Assembly (NCBI RefSeq): GCF_000373925.1
Contig: NZ_KB892768.1
Span: 62,001 to 126,000 of the forward strand
From: Actinopolymorpha alba DSM 45243
Lineage (GTDB): Bacteria > Actinomycetota > Actinomycetes > Propionibacteriales > Actinopolymorphaceae
Length of the DNA: 64,000 bases
Direction of reading: 5' to 3'
Shown here: piece after piece, positions 57,560 through 64,000 of the stretch
How the letters are laid out: each line of letters opens with the position of its first letter
Position numbering within the stretch: position 1 is the first letter of the stretch
Notes under the pieces: model-generated
What the model was told of the DNA's origin: nothing
What the model saw: only the letters and a program-made list of their open reading frames with translations
Database searches by the model: none
Position numbers and translations under genes: made by a program

Positions 57560-57780
57560 TCGTCCGTCGTCGCCCGTCCACGTGTGAACCCCGCGCGACC
57601 CCCGGCCCGGACCCGGCGCCGCTGGCGAGCGCTCCGCGTCCAGTGCGGCGTGACGTCGCCGCGACCGGTAGCCTGGCCGTAATTTCCGAACCGGCGGTGG
57701 GGCTCGCCGGCCACAACCGCGGCGCCGGCGCCGCCAACGGTCCCTGGTGCGTACGACCGGTCCACGCATCAGGAGGGACG

Positions 57781-58293
57781 ATGGCCGCTGACAGTTCGCA
57801 GCGAACGGTCGACCAGGACACGGCAGCCTGGCCGGGCCGGTTCCTCCGCCGTCTCCGATTCTCTCGCCGCCTTCGCTTTCTCACCCGCTTCCGCGCCCTC
57901 GACACGACCCTCGTGATCGCGATCGGCGGCGCTTTGGGCGCCCTCGCGCGCTACGGGTTGACGCTCCGCATTCCGCACGGGTCGCGAGGTTTTCCGTGGT
58001 CGACGTTCCTCACGAACGTGTCCGGCTGCTTCGCGATCGGGATCCTCATGGTGGTGATCCTCGATCTGCCCGCGCCCCATCGGCTGCTGCGCCCCTTCGT
58101 GGGCATCGGGATTCTCGGCGGATTCACGACCTTCTCGACGTACGCCATCGAAACCCGCCAACTCCTCCAGGTGGGTGAGCCCGCGACCGCCGCCGCGTAC
58201 CTGTTCGGCACCCTCGCCGCCGCGCTCCTCGCGGTCTGGTGCGGCGCGCGGGGCACACGACTCTTCAGGCAGTTCCTCAGGAGGTCTCGATGA
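57781..58293 (+). CDS. Fluoride channel FluC (CrcB) subunit 1
   Basis: This 170-residue protein has four membrane segments after a 36-residue basic N-terminal extension. Signature motifs are [12 protein letters not shown] near 43-54, [10 protein letters not shown] near 76 with the pore Asn, and [12 protein letters not shown] near 110. FluC proteins export fluoride as dual-topology dimers. Here two different subunits are encoded and probably heterodimerise. AGGAGGGACG precedes the ATG. Its stop overlaps the next gene (ATGA). Confidence 0.92.
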
Positions 58294-58631
58294 ACTCCCT
58301 CGCCGGACCGGCCAAGCGCCTCACCATCTTCGTCGGGGAGGACGACCGCTTCCACCACCGGCCGGTCTACGCCGAGATCGTCCACCGCGCCCACCAGGCC
58401 GGGCTCGCCGGCGCGTCGGTGTTCCGCGGCATCGAGGGGTACGGCGCGAGCCGGCACGTCCACACGAGCAGATTCCTCAGCCTGTCGGAGAACCTCCCGT
58501 TGGCCATCGTCATCGTCGACACCGAGGAACGCATCGAGGCCTTCCTGCCGCAGCTCGACGAACTCGTGACCGCCGGACTGGTCATGGTGGACGACGTGCG
58601 GGTGGTGCGGTACGTGGGGCGGCAGAGATGA
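58290..58631 (+). CDS. DUF190 family protein of the fluoride operon
   Basis: A 113-residue PII-like protein of the DUF190 family. [18 protein letters not shown] is at 10-27, then [19 protein letters not shown], and a C-terminal [11 protein letters not shown]. It is coupled on both sides by ATGA overlaps to two fluC genes, so it most likely regulates or accompanies the channel. Confidence 0.92.
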
Positions 58632-59020
58632 CGGCCGTCCTCGCGGTCGTGCTCGGCGGCCTGATCGGCGCGCCACTGCGCTATCACCTGGACAGGGCGA
58701 TCCAGACTCGCCACGAATCCGCCTTCCCCTGGGGGACCCTCACAGTCAACGTCCTGGGTTCCTTCCTCCTGGGGGTGATCGCCTCAGCCACCGAGTCCGG
58801 CGTACTCGGCGCGCTCGGCGCCCCCATGTACGCACTGGTCGGCACCGGCCTGTGCGGCGCGCTGACGACGTTCTCGACCTTCGGGTACGAAACGCTGCGC
58901 CTGCTGGAGGATGGCGCTCGGCTCCCCGCCGTCGCGAACGTGGGCGTGAGCCTGCTCGCCGGCCTGGGCGCGGCGTTCGCGGGCTTCGCGATCGGAATGG
59001 CAGTCTGGTCCGGCGGCTAG
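58628..59020 (+). CDS. Fluoride channel FluC (CrcB) subunit 2
   Basis: This 130-residue protein has four membrane segments and no N-terminal extension. The motifs [14 protein letters not shown] near 9-22, [11 protein letters not shown] near 41 and [12 protein letters not shown] near 79 are typical. It is the partner of the subunit at 57781-58293. I looked for the fluoride riboswitch upstream of the operon and did not see its conserved bases. Confidence 0.93.
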
Positions 59021-59531: not shown

Positions 59532-60287
59532 ATGACGACGCAGACCTGGGACCCCACGCTGTACGACGGCAAGCACGGCTTCGTCGCCGCCCTCGGCGCC
59601 GGCGTACTCGACCTGCTCGCGGCCCAACCCCGCGAACGCGTCCTCGACCTCGGGTGCGGCACTGGCGACCACGTCGCACAGCTGCGCGCAGCTGGCGTGG
59701 AGGCGATCGGTGTCGACGCGAGCGCGGAGATGATCGAGCGGGCCCGCGAGAAGTTCCCAGACCTGCCCTTCGGCGTCGCCGACGCCCGTGAACTGCCCTA
59801 CGCGGACGAGTTCGACGCCGTGCTGAGCAACGCCACCTTGCACTGGGTGCGGGACGCCGCCGCGGCGGCCAGGTCGATCGCCCGCGCCCTCCGCCCGGGC
59901 GGCCGATTCGTGGCAGAGCTCGGTGGCGCGCGGAACATCGCGACGATCGCGGCGGCTGCCGAGGCGCTCCGCGACGAACTCGGCGTCTCCCCCTCCGCGT
60001 CCCCGTGGTACTTCCCGACCATCGCGGAGTACGCCCGCGTGCTCGAGGACGCCGGCTTCGAGGTGAGTCACGCCTGGCTCTTCGATCGACCGACGCCCCT
60101 CGAGGGCGACGATGGACTGGCGACCTGGATGAGGATGTTCGGGCAGCACCTACTGGTCGACGTACCCGACACTGAGGCGTTCCTGGACCAGCTGAGCGAC
60201 CGCCTGCGCACCCAGCTCCACCACGACGGCACCTGGTGGGCCGACTACCGCCGCCTGCGGATCAGAGCAACCCTCACTCCGAGCTGA
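59532..60287 (+). CDS. Class I SAM-dependent methyltransferase (trans-aconitate methyltransferase-like)
   Basis: A 251-residue methyltransferase. The SAM-binding motif I is VLDLGCGTGDHV near 38-49, motif II is GVDASAEMIERA near 61, and post-motif ALRPGGRFVAELGG is near 120. The C-terminal segment LEDAGFEVSHAWLFDRPTPL matches the trans-aconitate 2-methyltransferase subgroup. Start at ATG 59532. Its 3' end overlaps the convergent gene by 14 bases. Confidence 0.87.
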   Translation: MTTQTWDPTLYDGKHGFVAALGAGVLDLLAAQPRERVLDLGCGTGDHVAQLRAAGVEAIGVDASAEMIERAREKFPDLPFGVADARELPYADEFDAVLSNATLHWVRDAAAAARSIARALRPGGRFVAELGGARNIATIAAAAEALRDELGVSPSASPWYFPTIAEYARVLEDAGFEVSHAWLFDRPTPLEGDDGLATWMRMFGQHLLVDVPDTEAFLDQLSDRLRTQLHHDGTWWADYRRLRIRATLTPS

Positions 60288-61632
60288 CGGGTCCCAGGAC
60301 GCCGCCGTCCAGCAGGGTGGGCGCACGGCGCCACGCCACCATCTCGGCGCCGCGTAGCTCCCAGCGGGCATCCCAGCCTGCCTTGCGTTCGGCCTCGTCG
60401 AGTTCGTACGACAACAGCCCGACCCGCGCGGCGACCAGCCTCCGCCACGGCGGCGGCAGGTCTGTTGACAGGCCATGCCGCAGGCACACTCCATGCGCTC
60501 GCGCCATCCGGTCGGCGTACGCCGGATCGGCGGCGACCAGGCCGAGGAGACGGCGGGTCCGAGCCACCGCCGCCTGCCGCCGCGCGCAGAGCTGGCAGGA
60601 AAGTTCGCGCCTGATCGGGGCGGCTCGACGGCTCGGCCACCACGTGGTGCGGGAGTCCACCTGCCGCAGGTACCCCTGGAGTTCCGTCCGCCACACCATC
60701 GCGACGTGCTCGATCACCGCCGCGACAGCCACGAGCAGACCCTCATCGGTGAGGGTGACCGAGGAAAGTTCTCCCGAGGTGAGGCGGAAGCTCGTCAGGT
60801 CACCGAGGTGCCGGGCGCACAACGTCGCGTCAGTGCGAAGCTCGGCGGACTCCTCCGGGCTGAGCCCCGTCAGCCAGTGGATGCCCCGCCACTCCGCGAG
60901 GTCCGCGGCCGCGCACAACGGACAGCACGGCCAGTCCAGCACAAGATTCGCATCCCCCAACGGACCATGATTCCGGGCGGCCTCCTCCGCTGCGAACACC
61001 CGCGTGAAGCCTTCCTCCCGGATCTTCCGGCGTCGGGCGAAGTCGGGATCGCTGCTGGTCAGATGTTCCCGGGCGGTCACCGTGTCCTTTCCGAGCCTGC
61101 TGTCGAGCAGGGTGGCCACAGCCCGCCCGACTGTGGGCCCGCCGCGCTCGATGATCGCCAGCCCGTGCGTCAGGCAGAGAGCGTCACCGGCGTCCATGAG
61201 GCGCCTGACCTCCGCGTCCACCAGGCCGGCGCGCAGAGTGCCGAGTACATCCGCCTCTGTCCGGGCAGCGGCCTGGCATGCGGGGCACGGGCCTGGCGTG
61301 ACTGGGCTCGGCGCGGCCAACGCGCGGGCGCCCGCACGCGCGACGTCGGCGAACACCCACCGCGCGAGCCAGGACGTCGACGCGCCGAGGTCGAGTAGCC
61401 GGCGCGTGTGCGGCGCGCAGAAGCCGAATGAGCGCTCCAGGCGTTCACGCATCGCCAGGTCGACGCGGGTGTCGTTCTCGTACGCGAAGAACCACCGCCG
61501 CATTGAATCTTCCCGGGCGCGACAGACCGGACATCCTTCTCCACCCAACGCCGCGATCGCGTCAGCACGGACCTGCGCGTCGGGCCGTGGCGCGCGTACG
61601 CCCAGCACTGAGAGCCAGCGGCGAAATGCCAT
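60274..61632 (-). CDS. Protein with four CxxC...CxxH modules, unrecognised
   Basis: This 452-residue protein contains four regularly built Cys/His modules: CPVC (34-37) with CAPH (72-75), CPAC (116-119) with CLTH (153-156), CPLC (237-240) with CARH (272-275), and CQLC (346-349) with CLRH (383-386). The spacing within modules is 35-38 residues, so each can bind one zinc. Between them are helical, Arg-rich segments. No enzyme motif or membrane segment is visible. It is probably a multi-zinc scaffold or a nucleic-acid- or protein-binding factor. It is convergent with the methyltransferase gene and divergent from the AraC gene. Confidence 0.8.
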   Translation of the reverse strand: MAFRRWLSVLGVRAPRPDAQVRADAIAALGGEGCPVCRAREDSMRRWFFAYENDTRVDLAMRERLERSFGFCAPHTRRLLDLGASTSWLARWVFADVARAGARALAAPSPVTPGPCPACQAAARTEADVLGTLRAGLVDAEVRRLMDAGDALCLTHGLAIIERGGPTVGRAVATLLDSRLGKDTVTAREHLTSSDPDFARRRKIREEGFTRVFAAEEAARNHGPLGDANLVLDWPCCPLCAAADLAEWRGIHWLTGLSPEESAELRTDATLCARHLGDLTSFRLTSGELSSVTLTDEGLLVAVAAVIEHVAMVWRTELQGYLRQVDSRTTWWPSRRAAPIRRELSCQLCARRQAAVARTRRLLGLVAADPAYADRMARAHGVCLRHGLSTDLPPPWRRLVAARVGLLSYELDEAERKAGWDARWELRGAEMVAWRRAPTLLDGGVLGPVSSE

Positions 61633-61705: not shown

Positions 61706-62443
61706 GTGACCGACGTTTCGCCTCCAGCGTCCGCGACGTACGCCGAGCTCGCGCCACCCGCACAGCTCGCGGCCGACGTCCGGTGCCTGTGGTGGTCGAG
61801 CTTCGGAGACCGGTCCGCGATCATCCCCGACGGCTGCCTTGACCTGATCGTCACGCCCGAACGGACATTCGTCGCCGGGCCCGACACCCGGCCCTGGACC
61901 TCGCAGTCTCCAGTCGGGATGGTGATGTACGGCATCAGGTTCCAGACCGGCCGCGCGAGCCGTGTCCTCGGCGTACCCGCGGACGCGTTGCGTGACCAGC
62001 GGGTCGATCTCAGCGACCTGTGGGGAGCCGCTGGTCGGCGTGCCACCGCCCGGCTCACCTCGGACCCGGGCCAGCTCGCTCCGCTGGTCACCGAGCGACT
62101 CCAGCGAACTGATCTCGCTGTGCCTGACCGTCAGGTCGACCTCGCGGTACGCAGGCTCCAGAGAGGTGCTCCGCGGGTAGGTGCCGCGTTGGCCGACCTC
62201 GCGGACCTCGACGTCAGCGAACGGCAGCTCCGGCGACGGTTCGCCGCCGCGGTCGGCTACGGCCCGGCGACCTTCCTGCGGGTCGCCCGCCTGGAACGGG
62301 TCCGCCACCGGGCCCGGACCCGACCAGACGCCACGCTCGCTGACCTCGCGGCCGACACGGGCTACGCCGACCAGGCGCATCTCGCGCGCGACTGCCGAGA
62401 GCTGGCCGGGGCGCCACCGAGCACGTTGTTGCGCGCTCGGTGA
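61706..62443 (+). CDS. AraC-family transcriptional regulator
   Basis: A 245-residue regulator. The N-terminal part (IIPDGCLDLIVTPERTFVAG near 39-58) matches the DUF6597-type sensor domain. The C-terminal AraC HTH contains VSERQLRRRFAAAVGYGPAT near 171-190 and ADLAADTGYADQAHLARDCR near 214-233. The GTG start is at 61706, close after the divergent gene's start, so control of the Cys/His-module gene is possible. Confidence 0.9.
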   Translation: MTDVSPPASATYAELAPPAQLAADVRCLWWSSFGDRSAIIPDGCLDLIVTPERTFVAGPDTRPWTSQSPVGMVMYGIRFQTGRASRVLGVPADALRDQRVDLSDLWGAAGRRATARLTSDPGQLAPLVTERLQRTDLAVPDRQVDLAVRRLQRGAPRVGAALADLADLDVSERQLRRRFAAAVGYGPATFLRVARLERVRHRARTRPDATLADLAADTGYADQAHLARDCRELAGAPPSTLLRAR

Positions 62444-62503: not shown

Positions 62504-64000
62504 CTACGGCCGGGTCATGCCGAAGGTGTAGCTGCCGCTACCTCTGTAGGAAACGATCCGCCAGCGGTAGGTACCGGAGGTCCCGGTGTAGGTCACGTCC
62601 TCGTCGGGCGCGGTGCTGATGCCCTGCGCGACCGTGATCCAGAAGCTCCCGCTGAGCTTCTGGAGGTAGAGGTCGAAGTCGACGCCGCTCGGCCCGTCGA
62701 GGCACCCGCGGAAGGTGCCACCTCCCGACGTGAACGACGTACCGTTCGGCTGGATGGCGACGGCGCCCGTGCCCGACAGCGAGCCGGTGTAGACCGATGG
62801 CAACGCGGCGCATCCGGACGCCGGCGGCGGCTCCTGGCCACCGGCGCCGGTGTAGAGGAGGAGGTTCGGCGAACCCGAACCCGGGTTGCCCACGACCCCC
62901 TGCGTGGCGTTGCCCACCAGAGCGTTCCGCACCGTGCTCGGTGACGCCGACGGGTTGCCCTGGAGATACAGCACCGCCGCGCCAGTCACGTGCGGCGTTG
63001 CCATCGACGTACCGCTGATCGTGTTCGTGGCGGTGTCACTGGTGTGCCAGGTGGACTGGATGCTCGAGCCGGGCGCGAAGATGTCAAGGCAGGTGCCGAT
63101 GTTGGAGAACGACGACCGCGCGTCGGTGGAGGTCGTGGATCCGACCGTGATGGCCGCGCCCACCCGCGCCGGGGAGTAGTTGCAGGCGTTCGCGCCCGAG
63201 TCGTTGCCGGCCGCGATGGCGTACGTCACGCCGTCGTTGATGGAGTTGACGACGGCGTTGTCCAGCGAGGTGGAGGCGCCGCCGCCGAGGCTCATGTTGG
63301 CCGCGGCGGGTTGACCGGCCGTGTGGTTGGACGTGACCCAGTCGATGCCCGCGATCACGCCGGCGGTGGTGCCGCTGCCGTTACAGTCGAGGACCCGCAC
63401 GCCGACGAGCCGGACGCCCTTCGCCACGCCGTATGTCGCGCTGCCGACGGTGCCAGCAACGTGCGTGCCGTGGCCGTTGCAGTCGTCGGCGGAGCCGCCG
63501 TCCACGGCGTCGAAGCCGCTGACCGCCCGACCGCCGAACTGCTGGTGGCTGTAGCGGATGCCGGTGTCGATGATGTAGGCCGTGATGCCCGCGCCGGTTG
63601 GGGTGTAGGTGTAGCTGTTGCTGAGCGGAAGGTTGCGCTGGTCGATCCGGTCGATCCCCCAGGTGGCCGGCGACTGCGTCGTGTTGATGCTGACCTTCTG
63701 GTCAGCCTCGATGTACTTGACGTCGGGGTTGGCGCGCATCTTGTCGAGTCCGCGCTGCGACAAGGTGGCGGCGAAGCCATGCAATGCGGCGGCGTACGTG
63801 CGCTGGACTCGCCCGCCGGCGACCTCCGCCTCGGTGCGCGCGGACCGCGCCATGACACTCGACACACCATCACGGAGCACAACGATGTAACGACCCTTGA
63901 GGGCGGTCGTCCGCTCCGCACCGATCAGTGGTGCGAGGGTCGTCGCGCCCGACGAGGTGGTCGGGGCGACCGCGCCCGCGACTCCCGCGAAACCGAACGT
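62504..64000 (-). CDS. Secreted subtilase (S8 peptidase), 5' end off the window
   Basis: About 498 residues are visible, and the start lies beyond the right edge. The visible N-terminus reads as the end of a signal region followed by an inhibitor-I9-type propeptide (GRYIVVLRDGV). The peptidase domain has the catalytic Asp in AYIIDTGIRYSH, His in GHGTHVAG, and Ser in SGTSMATPHV, with Asn in AAGNDSG. A Pro/Gly linker leads to a C-terminal beta domain ending TYRWRIVSYRGSGSYTF, of the pre-peptidase C-terminal type. The protein is exported and self-processing. It is convergent with the AraC gene. Confidence 0.95.
   Translation of the reverse strand, partial: TFGFAGVAGAVAPTTSSGATTLAPLIGAERTTALKGRYIVVLRDGVSSVMARSARTEAEVAGGRVQRTYAAALHGFAATLSQRGLDKMRANPDVKYIEADQKVSINTTQSPATWGIDRIDQRNLPLSNSYTYTPTGAGITAYIIDTGIRYSHQQFGGRAVSGFDAVDGGSADDCNGHGTHVAGTVGSATYGVAKGVRLVGVRVLDCNGSGTTAGVIAGIDWVTSNHTAGQPAAANMSLGGGASTSLDNAVVNSINDGVTYAIAAGNDSGANACNYSPARVGAAITVGSTTSTDARSSFSNIGTCLDIFAPGSSIQSTWHTSDTATNTISGTSMATPHVTGAAVLYLQGNPSASPSTVRNALVGNATQGVVGNPGSGSPNLLLYTGAGGQEPPPASGCAALPSVYTGSLSGTGAVAIQPNGTSFTSGGGTFRGCLDGPSGVDFDLYLQKLSGSFWITVAQGISTAPDEDVTYTGTSGTYRWRIVSYRGSGSYTFGMTRP

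What the first reader, a model, noticed from the sequence alone, without database searches (positions are those of the whole stretch)
60274..61632. Four-module CxxC...CxxH protein
Four evenly built modules with 35-38-residue spacing, each able to hold a zinc, in a soluble 452-residue protein I cannot place in a family. Its position next to an AraC regulator with divergent starts suggests regulated expression.
Basis: seen in the sequence. Interest (0 to 1): 0.55.

Follow-up and report, generated by a model that had tools for sequence, protein, structure and literature searches.

The report
Four-metal-site protein beside fluoride-defence genes
The protein is a double-length member of an uncharacterised bacterial family (DUF6062) with four conserved metal sites; relatives of it often sit behind RNA switches that sense toxic fluoride, so it may help these bacteria survive fluoride, and the fluoride-exporter genes next to it carry what looks like an overlooked version of that switch.

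Summary
Observation confirmed: window 60274-61632 (-) encodes 452 aa with four C-x2-C-x31-34-C-x2-H modules; no shuffle in 100,000 gave two, and all 16 ligands are invariant in 12 four-module proteins. It does have a family: Pfam DUF6062, function unknown, here duplicated in tandem. Zinc is likely but unmeasured.

Surroundings point to fluoride. Of 25 other DUF6062-type genes found in 396 genomes of the phylum, 12 have a same-strand fluoride riboswitch (RF01734) within 10 kb upstream (0.08 expected by random placement). Here, a crcB pair (fluoride exporter) lies within 1.4 kb in 7 of 8 family genomes.

That crcB operon starts with a conserved RNA (57690-57751 +) of fluoride-riboswitch anatomy, scoring below Rfam's cut-off (15.9 vs 34). 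A model of it hits 70 of 374 genomes of the class; of 51 sites examined, 46 precede crcB, one enolase, one pyrophosphatase.

Best reading: a zinc-structured protein that works in fluoride stress. Its biochemical step is inferred; no riboswitch was found before this gene itself, and 13 of the 25 relatives lack one.

The parts
60274..61632 (-). Four-module DUF6062 protein, 452 aa (stop codon included in coordinates)
   Evidence: ORF; Pfam PF19538 E 1.7e-9; found in 8 of 8 genomes of the family
61408..61533 (-). Module 1, residues 34-75: CPVC-x34-CAPH
   Evidence: ligands invariant in 12 of 12 four-module proteins
61165..61287 (-). Module 2, residues 116-156: CPAC-x33-CLTH
60808..60924 (-). Module 3, residues 237-275: CPLC-x31-CARH
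60475..60597 (-). Module 4, residues 346-386: CQLC-x33-CLRH; same spacing as the site of mycobacterial ribosomal protein bS18
   Evidence: bS18 profile match E 0.0077 with A4, 0.38 with A2
60304..60396 (-). Conserved C-terminal signature of the family (E413, R416, W420, R423, E425, G428, E430, W434, A437, G443)
   Evidence: invariant in 12 four-module proteins; partly kept in two-module DUF6062s
61706..62443 (+). Divergent AraC-type regulator (DUF6597 + HTH_18), conserved neighbour
   Evidence: by tblastn beside the gene in 7 of 8 family genomes
57690..57751 (+). Conserved structured RNA in front of crcB1: candidate divergent (G6/C38-type) fluoride riboswitch
   Evidence: RF01734 15.9 bits, below cut-off 34; near-invariant in 6 genomes; model R1 hits 70 of 374 genomes of the class; pseudoknot and stems covary
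57781..58293 (+). crcB1 (Fluc fluoride-channel subunit); ATG at 57781 chosen because a Shine-Dalgarno-like ggaggg precedes it
   Evidence: PF02537 E 6.3e-28
58239..58631 (+). DUF190 protein between the two crcB genes
   Evidence: PF02641 E 1.1e-39
58628..59020 (+). crcB2 (second Fluc subunit)
   Evidence: PF02537 E 2.8e-27; the search found no other crcB locus in the own genome

Best explanation
The gene encodes a cytosolic, all-helical zinc protein made of two tandem DUF6062 units, i.e. four C3H modules. In each module the CxxC at the head of one helix and the CxxH at the head of the helix that follows the helical hairpin bind one zinc and pin the bundle together, as in zinc-type ribosomal protein bS18. 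It works in the fluoride-stress response, next to the fluoride exporters (CrcB/Fluc). My committed mechanism is that it is a zinc-structured adaptor that binds a partner through its conserved C-terminal signature and so supports ion homeostasis or a fluoride-sensitive enzyme or transport complex. Shown here: family, duplication, ligand conservation, recurrent fluoride-riboswitch linkage of relatives, crcB linkage here. Inferred: zinc as the metal, cytosolic location, induction by fluoride, the adaptor role. In this genus control is probably by the divergent AraC-type protein, because no riboswitch was found before the gene. I do not file it as a member of the riboswitch regulon, only as working in the same response.
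For: DUF6062 membership. Homologous halves: hhalign probability 97.3, E 5.5e-11 for that single pair. Ligands are the only invariant columns in 21 sequences: C-terminal halves of 7 of the 12 four-module proteins plus 14 two-module proteins. The A4 profile's best PDB match is Mtb bS18 at CxxC-x33-CxxH, gap-free, E 0.0077; PMC10450194 (passages) gives bS18 a zinc site of that pattern. Linkage: 12 of 25 DUF6062-type genes have a same-strand RF01734 within 10 kb upstream, nearest 78, 93 and 124 bp; expected 0.077. The four-module gene of G304 lies 7.8 kb downstream of a riboswitch, after co-directional genes that include complex-I/hydrogenase-type subunits. Other neighbours: Na+/H+ exchangers, enolase, DUF190, one MFS subfamily in 6 loci; enolase, formate hydrogenlyase and antiporters are known riboswitch partners (PMC11139923, passages). 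Window lineage: crcB pair within 1.4 kb of the gene in 7 of 8 family genomes.
Against: No riboswitch of either type was found before the DUF6062 gene itself in the window lineage. It converges with the crcB operon, so it is not in that transcript, and NUDIX and methyltransferase genes lie between in most genomes. In G004 the two loci are 2 Mb apart. 13 of the 25 DUF6062-type genes have no upstream riboswitch. Two of these (G379, G441) are weak hits without modules and five have little upstream sequence on their contig (G282, G314, G324, G336, G526:C95), but the rest have no such excuse. One of the 12 positives (G434) rests on a riboswitch below Rfam's cut-off (31.7 bits) and a gene whose modules I did not inspect. 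A Clostridia member (Monoglobus, beside mntP) and a Thermomicrobium relative have no fluoride gene annotated within 7 kb and no Rfam hit. Neighbourhood conservation within one genus is partly shared ancestry. With the four-module profile (A2) bS18 falls to E 0.38, behind another hit (2jmb, a hypothetical protein, E 0.019). No metal, expression or binding data exist.
Confidence: 0.55

Rival explanations
1. A structural-zinc helical DUF6062 scaffold whose job in this genus is unrelated to fluoride; it merely neighbours crcB and is controlled by the AraC-type gene for some other purpose.
For: Convergent, not co-operonic; unlinked in G004; Clostridia and Thermomicrobium relatives lack fluoride neighbours; 13 of 25 genes have no upstream riboswitch.
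Against: crcB adjacency is also kept in the more distant genus of G018, where tblastn finds no NUDIX or methyltransferase gene and crcB directly abuts the gene; a four-module relative lies downstream of a riboswitch and hydrogenase-type genes.
Confidence: 0.32
2. The C3H sites hold Fe-S clusters or act as a thiol redox switch rather than structural zinc, making the protein an electron-transfer or redox-sensing partner, for example of a hydrogenase.
For: Complex-I/hydrogenase-type genes in L063 and L072 and an ORF in L068 that I read as a molybdopterin oxidoreductase from its translation only.
Against: Spacing equals the bS18 zinc site; most neighbours identified are transporters, not redox enzymes.
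Confidence: 0.08
3. A metal-buffering or metal-handing protein that moves zinc (or Mn, Mg) to fluoride-challenged enzymes or transporters. (Overlaps in part with the best explanation, so the odds do not sum to one.)
For: Next to mntP in Monoglobus, Cation_efflux and Na_H_Exchanger in L071; fluoride disturbs divalent metals (PMC11139923, passages).
Against: Invariant four-ligand C3H sites usually hold structural, slowly exchanging zinc (general knowledge).
Confidence: 0.15

Closest known systems
Pfam PF19538 (DUF6062, family of unknown function)
   Same: HMM match over cut-off, two C3H modules per unit, C-terminal signature
   Different: Here 452 aa with two units in tandem (four modules), against mostly 217-259 aa with two modules in the relatives listed; no function is assigned to the family
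Ribosomal protein bS18, zinc (C+) form
   Same: C-x2-C-x33-C-x2-H, gap-free profile alignment E 0.0077
   Different: Four copies of the site; not similar as a whole; E 0.38 with the four-module profile, so homology is not claimed
Fluoride riboswitch regulon (RF01734: fluoride exporters, enolase, formate hydrogenlyase, antiporters, pyrophosphatase; PMC11139923, passages)
   Same: Relatives of the gene sit downstream of such riboswitches
   Different: The window gene itself has none; no held paper contains the word DUF6062
Fluoride riboswitch aptamer RF01734 (for the RNA at 57690-57751)
   Same: P1, 8-nt loop, AACCGC linker, P3, pseudoknot in the same register, A40 and U48 kept; in front of crcB, elsewhere of enolase and pyrophosphatase
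   Different: Position 6 A to G with position 38 U to C, pseudoknot GGGGCY x RGUCCC, CAAC for UGAU; where RF01734 was reported at all it scored 15.9-31.7 bits, under the cut-off of 34

Membership tests
DUF6062 (PF19538) | Score over Pfam's gathering cut-off | tested here: met
   37.9 bits vs 27 for the whole protein; 12 of 12 four-module proteins match at E <= 0.01. The six-frame genome search gave one stretch at 16.4 bits only
DUF6062 (PF19538) | Two C-C-C-H modules per unit | tested here: met
   Eight ligands invariant in 21 of 21 sequences; halves homologous
DUF6062 (PF19538) | C-terminal E/G/E/W signature | tested here: met
   Invariant in the four-module set, partly kept in the two-module set
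Fluoride-riboswitch regulon member | Gene in a transcript headed by a fluoride riboswitch | tested here: not met
   None found upstream of the window gene; so not filed as a member. Met by position for 12 of 25 relatives
Fluoride-riboswitch regulon member | Fluoride-dependent expression or NaF phenotype | not testable with these tools
   Needs experiment
Ribosomal protein bS18 | Whole-protein similarity to bS18 | tested here: not met
   Only a 64-position stretch aligns, E 0.0077
Fluoride riboswitch RF01734 (RNA at 57690-57751) | Rfam gathering score 34 | tested here: not met
   15.9 bits in the window; best R1-type site seen 31.7 bits, L132
Fluoride riboswitch RF01734 (RNA at 57690-57751) | P1, P3 and pseudoknot | tested here: met
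   99.3% of 612 cells paired on 36 distinct sequences; pseudoknot outer pair CG:23, UG:7, UA:6; slid controls 38-58%. The minimum-energy fold of the window RNA alone is a different one
Fluoride riboswitch RF01734 (RNA at 57690-57751) | A40-U48 linchpin pair | tested here: met
   A and U at the corresponding places in 36 of 37 sites; role of the pair from PMC8752731 (passages)
Fluoride riboswitch RF01734 (RNA at 57690-57751) | Binds fluoride with Mg2+ | not testable with these tools
   Needs in-line probing or similar

The most novel reading that the evidence does not exclude
Two linked novelties. (1) DUF6062 is a new class of zinc-structured fluoride-stress protein; the four-module form is a duplicated version that some lineages place downstream of the fluoride riboswitch and others under an AraC-type regulator. 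(2) Actinomycetia use a widespread, so far unannotated subtype of the fluoride riboswitch in which the A6/U38 contact is replaced by G6/C38, controlling crcB, enolase and pyrophosphatase.
Probability: 0.45. Interest if true: 0.8.

Novelty: new variant of a known kind. Interest (0 to 1): 0.66.

Why it matters
A Pfam family without a function gains a testable role (fluoride stress) and a testable chemistry (about four zinc per chain). If the RNA next door binds fluoride, fluoride sensing in this class has been undercounted: Rfam's model reaches its cut-off at none of the 20 loci given to the gathering-level scan, yet crcB, and once each enolase and pyrophosphatase, all known fluoride-riboswitch partners, follow the element. 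The paired change at positions 6 and 38 would also be a natural mutagenesis experiment on how an RNA cages an anion.

Tried and rejected
Known enzyme, NCBIfam family, solved relative: no NCBIfam match at E <= 1, no PDB sequence match by phmmer, Foldseek no hit at E <= 0.001 with either model, second look by VIA-align best Z 2.9 among 48 chains (no fold is excluded by this). The tools return no coordinates, so ligand geometry was not checked. Anti-phage defence: PADLOC 0 matches. Mobile or viral origin: a viral-contig scan with one two-module DUF6062 (L073) found no relative. A plasmid search with the same query gave two distant records without annotated fluoride genes nearby.

Own wrong turn: I first read the ORF beside DUF6062 in L068 as CrcB (note); Pfam showed zinc ribbon plus HEAT repeats and I dropped it.

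An independent replicate of the riboswitch association failed for lack of new hits: class searches around G253 (24 genomes) and G385 (40) and a family search around G304 (39) returned only DUF6062 genes already counted. The 25-gene list was put together by hand, own gene excluded; it keeps weak hits and fragments. I inspected the modules of 20 of the 25 (regions), not of G434, G471, G322 and two G526 pieces. Without G379 and G441, which show no module, the count is 12 of 23.

The folding energy of the window RNA is not better than shuffles (z 0.84; L014 0.21, L016 0.45, L085 -1.61, L086 -2.62), and the minimum-energy folds of the window and L014 copies are not the proposed structure, while those of L016, L085 and L086 contain P1 and a P3-like helix. 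The case rests on conservation, covariation and genomic position, not on energy.

The position-6/38 tally uses a text pattern, not a joint structural alignment. It left 10 sites unread (1 + 4 of the R1 set, 5 Rfam-type); I read those by eye from the printed sequences. Two sites with the same sequence as another were left out (L118 first copy = L115; L125 = L124). Result: 54 G/C, 1 G/U, 16 A/U, 0 mismatched of 71. Most of this is one difference between two groups, so it is few independent events.
Full report
OBSERVATION. The ORF at 60274-61632 (-) is real: ATG start, 452 aa, N-terminal Met invariant in the family alignment. It has four modules C-x2-C-x34/33/31/33-C-x2-H. In 100,000 shuffles of the protein 144 had one such module and none had two. 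The search of 196 genomes of the order found it in 8 of 8 genomes of its own family (the 7 others 54-66% identical) and gave one more hit, weak (E 8.3e-4, with an internal stop; the family has 8 held genomes). Two of them are named: Actinopolymorpha pittospori and A. rutila (their contig lengths equal those of G026 and G022). The protein search found a single copy in the own genome. The names of class and phylum used here (Actinomycetia, Actinomycetota) come from my knowledge of Actinopolymorpha, not from a call.

FAMILY AND ANATOMY. Pfam places the whole protein in DUF6062 (PF19538), E 1.7e-9, 37.9 bits against a cut-off of 27; 12 of 12 four-module proteins I collected match at E <= 0.01. The six-frame search of the own genome with the same model saw only one stretch, 16.4 bits, under the cut-off, and none at E <= 0.01, so that search under-counts four-module members. 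NCBIfam and PADLOC have no match. Relatives mostly have two modules in 217-259 aa; this one has four. The two halves align as homologues, hhalign probability 97.3 and E 5.5e-11 for that single pair, with the ligands in register, so it is a tandem duplication of the DUF6062 unit. In 12 four-module proteins down to 28% identity, all 16 Cys/His ligands are among the 43 invariant columns, and a C-terminal signature (E413, R416, W420, R423, E425, G428, E430, W434) is invariant too. In 21 sequences (C-terminal halves of 7 of the 12 four-module proteins, and 14 two-module proteins, one from Clostridia), exactly eight columns are invariant and all eight are ligands.

METAL. I infer zinc. The profile of the DUF6062 unit (A4) finds, as its best PDB sequence, M. 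tuberculosis ribosomal protein bS18 at E 0.0077: gap-free over CxxC-x33-CxxH. Passages of PMC10450194 state that bS18 coordinates zinc through a (CXXC)-(CXXH) pattern. The match is too weak to claim common descent, and with the four-module profile (A2) bS18 is at E 0.38, behind 2jmb, a hypothetical protein (E 0.019). AlphaFold models are all-helical (whole protein mean pLDDT 65.5, C-terminal half 75.9), with each CxxC and CxxH at the start of a helix in the latter.

WHAT RELATIVES LIVE WITH. I searched 396 genomes of the phylum with the four-module profile (16 genomes with a match, own included) and with PF19538 (16 genomes, 15 over cut-off). Leaving out the own gene this gives 25 DUF6062-type genes in 23 genomes. 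In the same 396 genomes RF01734 is found in 89 at E <= 0.001, 68 over cut-off. Twelve of the 25 genes have an RF01734 on the same strand within 10 kb upstream; distances run from 78 bp to 7.8 kb, eleven of them up to 2.01 kb; eleven of the twelve riboswitches are over Rfam's cut-off, that of G434 is not. Random placement predicts 0.077 (P about 2e-25 under that simple null, which ignores shared ancestry). At genome level 16 of 23 genomes with such a gene have a riboswitch, against 89 of 396 overall (Fisher 8e-7). In L072 and L076 the riboswitch directly precedes or abuts the DUF6062 start. Neighbours: Na+/H+ exchanger (L071, which has no riboswitch hit, and L075), enolase (L072), two DUF190 genes (L074), complex-I/hydrogenase-type subunits that I read as formate-hydrogenlyase-like (L063, L072), and one MFS subfamily in six loci, all six with RF01734. 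Passages of the review PMC11139923 list enolase, formate hydrogenlyase, Na+/H+ antiporters and pyrophosphatase as riboswitch-associated; Weinberg 2010 (PMC2864571, passages) names formate hydrogenlyase. The four-module gene of G304 ends a run of co-directional ORFs that starts next to a riboswitch at C3:205877-205943, so the link covers the four-module form.

COUNTER-EVIDENCE. Thirteen of the 25 genes have no upstream riboswitch. Two of these are weak hits without modules and five have little upstream sequence on their contig, but the rest have no such excuse. A Monoglobus DUF6062 sits beside mntP and a Thermomicrobium relative beside a HEAT-repeat gene, with no fluoride gene annotated within 7 kb and no Rfam hit. 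I could not sample other phyla further.

THE WINDOW LOCUS. Left to right: MFS (-), a 526-aa protein, crcB1, DUF190, crcB2, NUDIX, methyltransferase (all +), then DUF6062 (-), then AraC-type (+). The search found no other crcB locus in the own genome. In 7 of 8 family genomes a crcB pair lies within 1.4 kb of the DUF6062 gene; in G004 they are 2 Mb apart. In the more distant genus of G018, tblastn finds no NUDIX, methyltransferase or DUF190 gene there, and crcB abuts DUF6062, with AraC still on the other side. The gene is convergent to crcB, so it is not in that transcript. Control by the divergent AraC-type protein is the likeliest arrangement; this is inference from the conserved divergent order.

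THE RNA NEXT DOOR. No RF01734 is found in the window at gathering level, but a permissive scan puts a 15.9-bit RF01734 at 57684-57753, directly before crcB1. Aligning the region in six genomes of the genus shows a block that is almost invariant while its flanks diverge. The crcB locus of G004 and the second crcB pair of G018 carry it with compensating changes; in front of the G018 pair that adjoins DUF6062 I did not find it. Anatomy: P1, an 8-nt loop, AACCGC linker, P3, and a pseudoknot between loop (GGGGCY) and 3' strand (RGUCCC), the fluoride-riboswitch layout in the same register. A model (R1) from these eight sequences matched 70 of 374 genomes of the class, own included, 37 of 134 genera, 78 sites (E <= 0.01). 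In the family search it lies before crcB in 8 of 8 genomes, and at 2e-5 before a further crcB match in G026; the weaker sites of that search were not examined. On 37 aligned sites, 8 of them the model's own, 99.3% of 612 cells pair; the pseudoknot's outer pair is CG in 23, UG in 7 and UA in 6 of 36 distinct sequences, P3 has GC to AU changes in two, and slid controls pair 38-58%. That alignment is fitted to P1 and P3 but not to the pseudoknot, which was not in the model. Single-sequence folding does not support the structure for the window copy.

I looked downstream of 51 of the 78 sites (30 best, the window among them, plus 21 weaker): 46 precede crcB (one at 606 nt, one identified by Pfam only), one enolase (L126, PF00113 E 2.5e-96), one inorganic pyrophosphatase (L132, PF00719 E 6.5e-57, 234 nt on and in frame), two are cut by contig ends and one is unexplained (L137). 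Enolase and pyrophosphatase are known fluoride-riboswitch genes (PMC11139923, passages), which argues that the ligand is still fluoride. Rfam at gathering level finds RF01734 in 0 of 20 such loci; permissively it appears at the site in 7 of 13 loci at 16.7-31.7 bits. Rfam-type riboswitches do occur in this class: three genomes of the class had RF01734, two over the cut-off (G482, G492) and one (G280) at a site that R1 also hits. In one search, R1's 21 hits beyond its own eight sites include 5 on Rfam-type sites (14-22 bits); the other 16 score alike, so that cross-hit alone proves little.

The difference is systematic. At positions 6 and 38 (numbering of the fluoride aptamer in the literature; that these two contact each other is recalled, from no call) the 15 Rfam-type sites in hand are A/U. 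The 56 sites of the R1 set are G/C in 54, G/U in one, and A/U in one (L132, the highest-scoring for Rfam, an intermediate); none is mismatched (ten sites read by eye). A40-U48, the pair that fluoride locks (PMC8752731, passages), is kept in 36 of 37. PMC13273304 (passages) notes that Actinomycetota have nearly no transcriptional variants among Rfam fluoride riboswitches; that fits, but does not show, translational control.

LITERATURE. No held paper contains 'DUF6062'. For a variant or second fluoride riboswitch class I saw only listings (40 of 115 papers listed, 20 of 46), whose titles and abstract openings describe none, and passages of PMC7266159, PMC11077080 and PMC13273304, which describe none either. 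Baker et al. 2012 is not held and I did not read it, so prior description there or in unheld papers is possible.

MECHANISM AND VERDICT. I file the protein as a duplicated DUF6062 member, probably zinc-structured, and think it most likely works in fluoride stress. Family, duplication, ligand conservation and the linkage are shown; zinc, induction and the adaptor role are inferred. The discovery value lies in the functional lead for DUF6062 and in the divergent riboswitch candidate 2.5 kb away.

Noticed in passing
57690-57751 (+): Conserved pseudoknotted RNA before crcB1, a candidate G6/C38-type fluoride riboswitch below Rfam's cut-off; model R1 finds it in 70 of 374 genomes of the class, at 46 of 51 examined sites before crcB, once each before enolase and pyrophosphatase.
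   Followed up: yes
L132:2536-2592 (-): Intermediate between the two RNA subtypes: A6/U38 as in Rfam but the variant pseudoknot; in frame before a pyrophosphatase; RF01734 31.7 bits.
   Followed up: partly
L066:477-9739: Four RF01734 riboswitches within about 9.3 kb on one strand, one before an MFS gene, one before a DUF6062-type gene that is split over two frames.
   Followed up: partly
L078:6568-6731: Two fluoride riboswitches back to back on opposite strands, 41 bp apart.
   Followed up: no
L066, L068, L072, L075, L076, L078: One MFS subfamily recurs near DUF6062 in six loci, all six with a fluoride riboswitch; may be an unrecognised fluoride-linked transporter.
   Followed up: partly
L068:8392-8874 and L072:8352-8849 (-): HEAT-repeat protein with zinc-ribbon-like N-terminus next to DUF6062 in two fluoride loci; a HEAT protein also follows the Thermomicrobium relative.
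   Followed up: no
L067:1697-3574 and L072:10133-11902 (-): Dynamin-type GTPase directly upstream of a four-module DUF6062 (L067) and in a riboswitch locus (L072).
   Followed up: no
L083:6403-7735: Clostridial DUF6062 (Monoglobus plasmid) directly after a manganese efflux pump gene mntP; no fluoride gene annotated near.
   Followed up: partly
62504-63880 (-): ORF that reads like a secreted subtilisin-type protease; among the seven family regions fetched, tblastn finds a homologue only in L019. Name from reading the translation, not from a family search.
   Followed up: no
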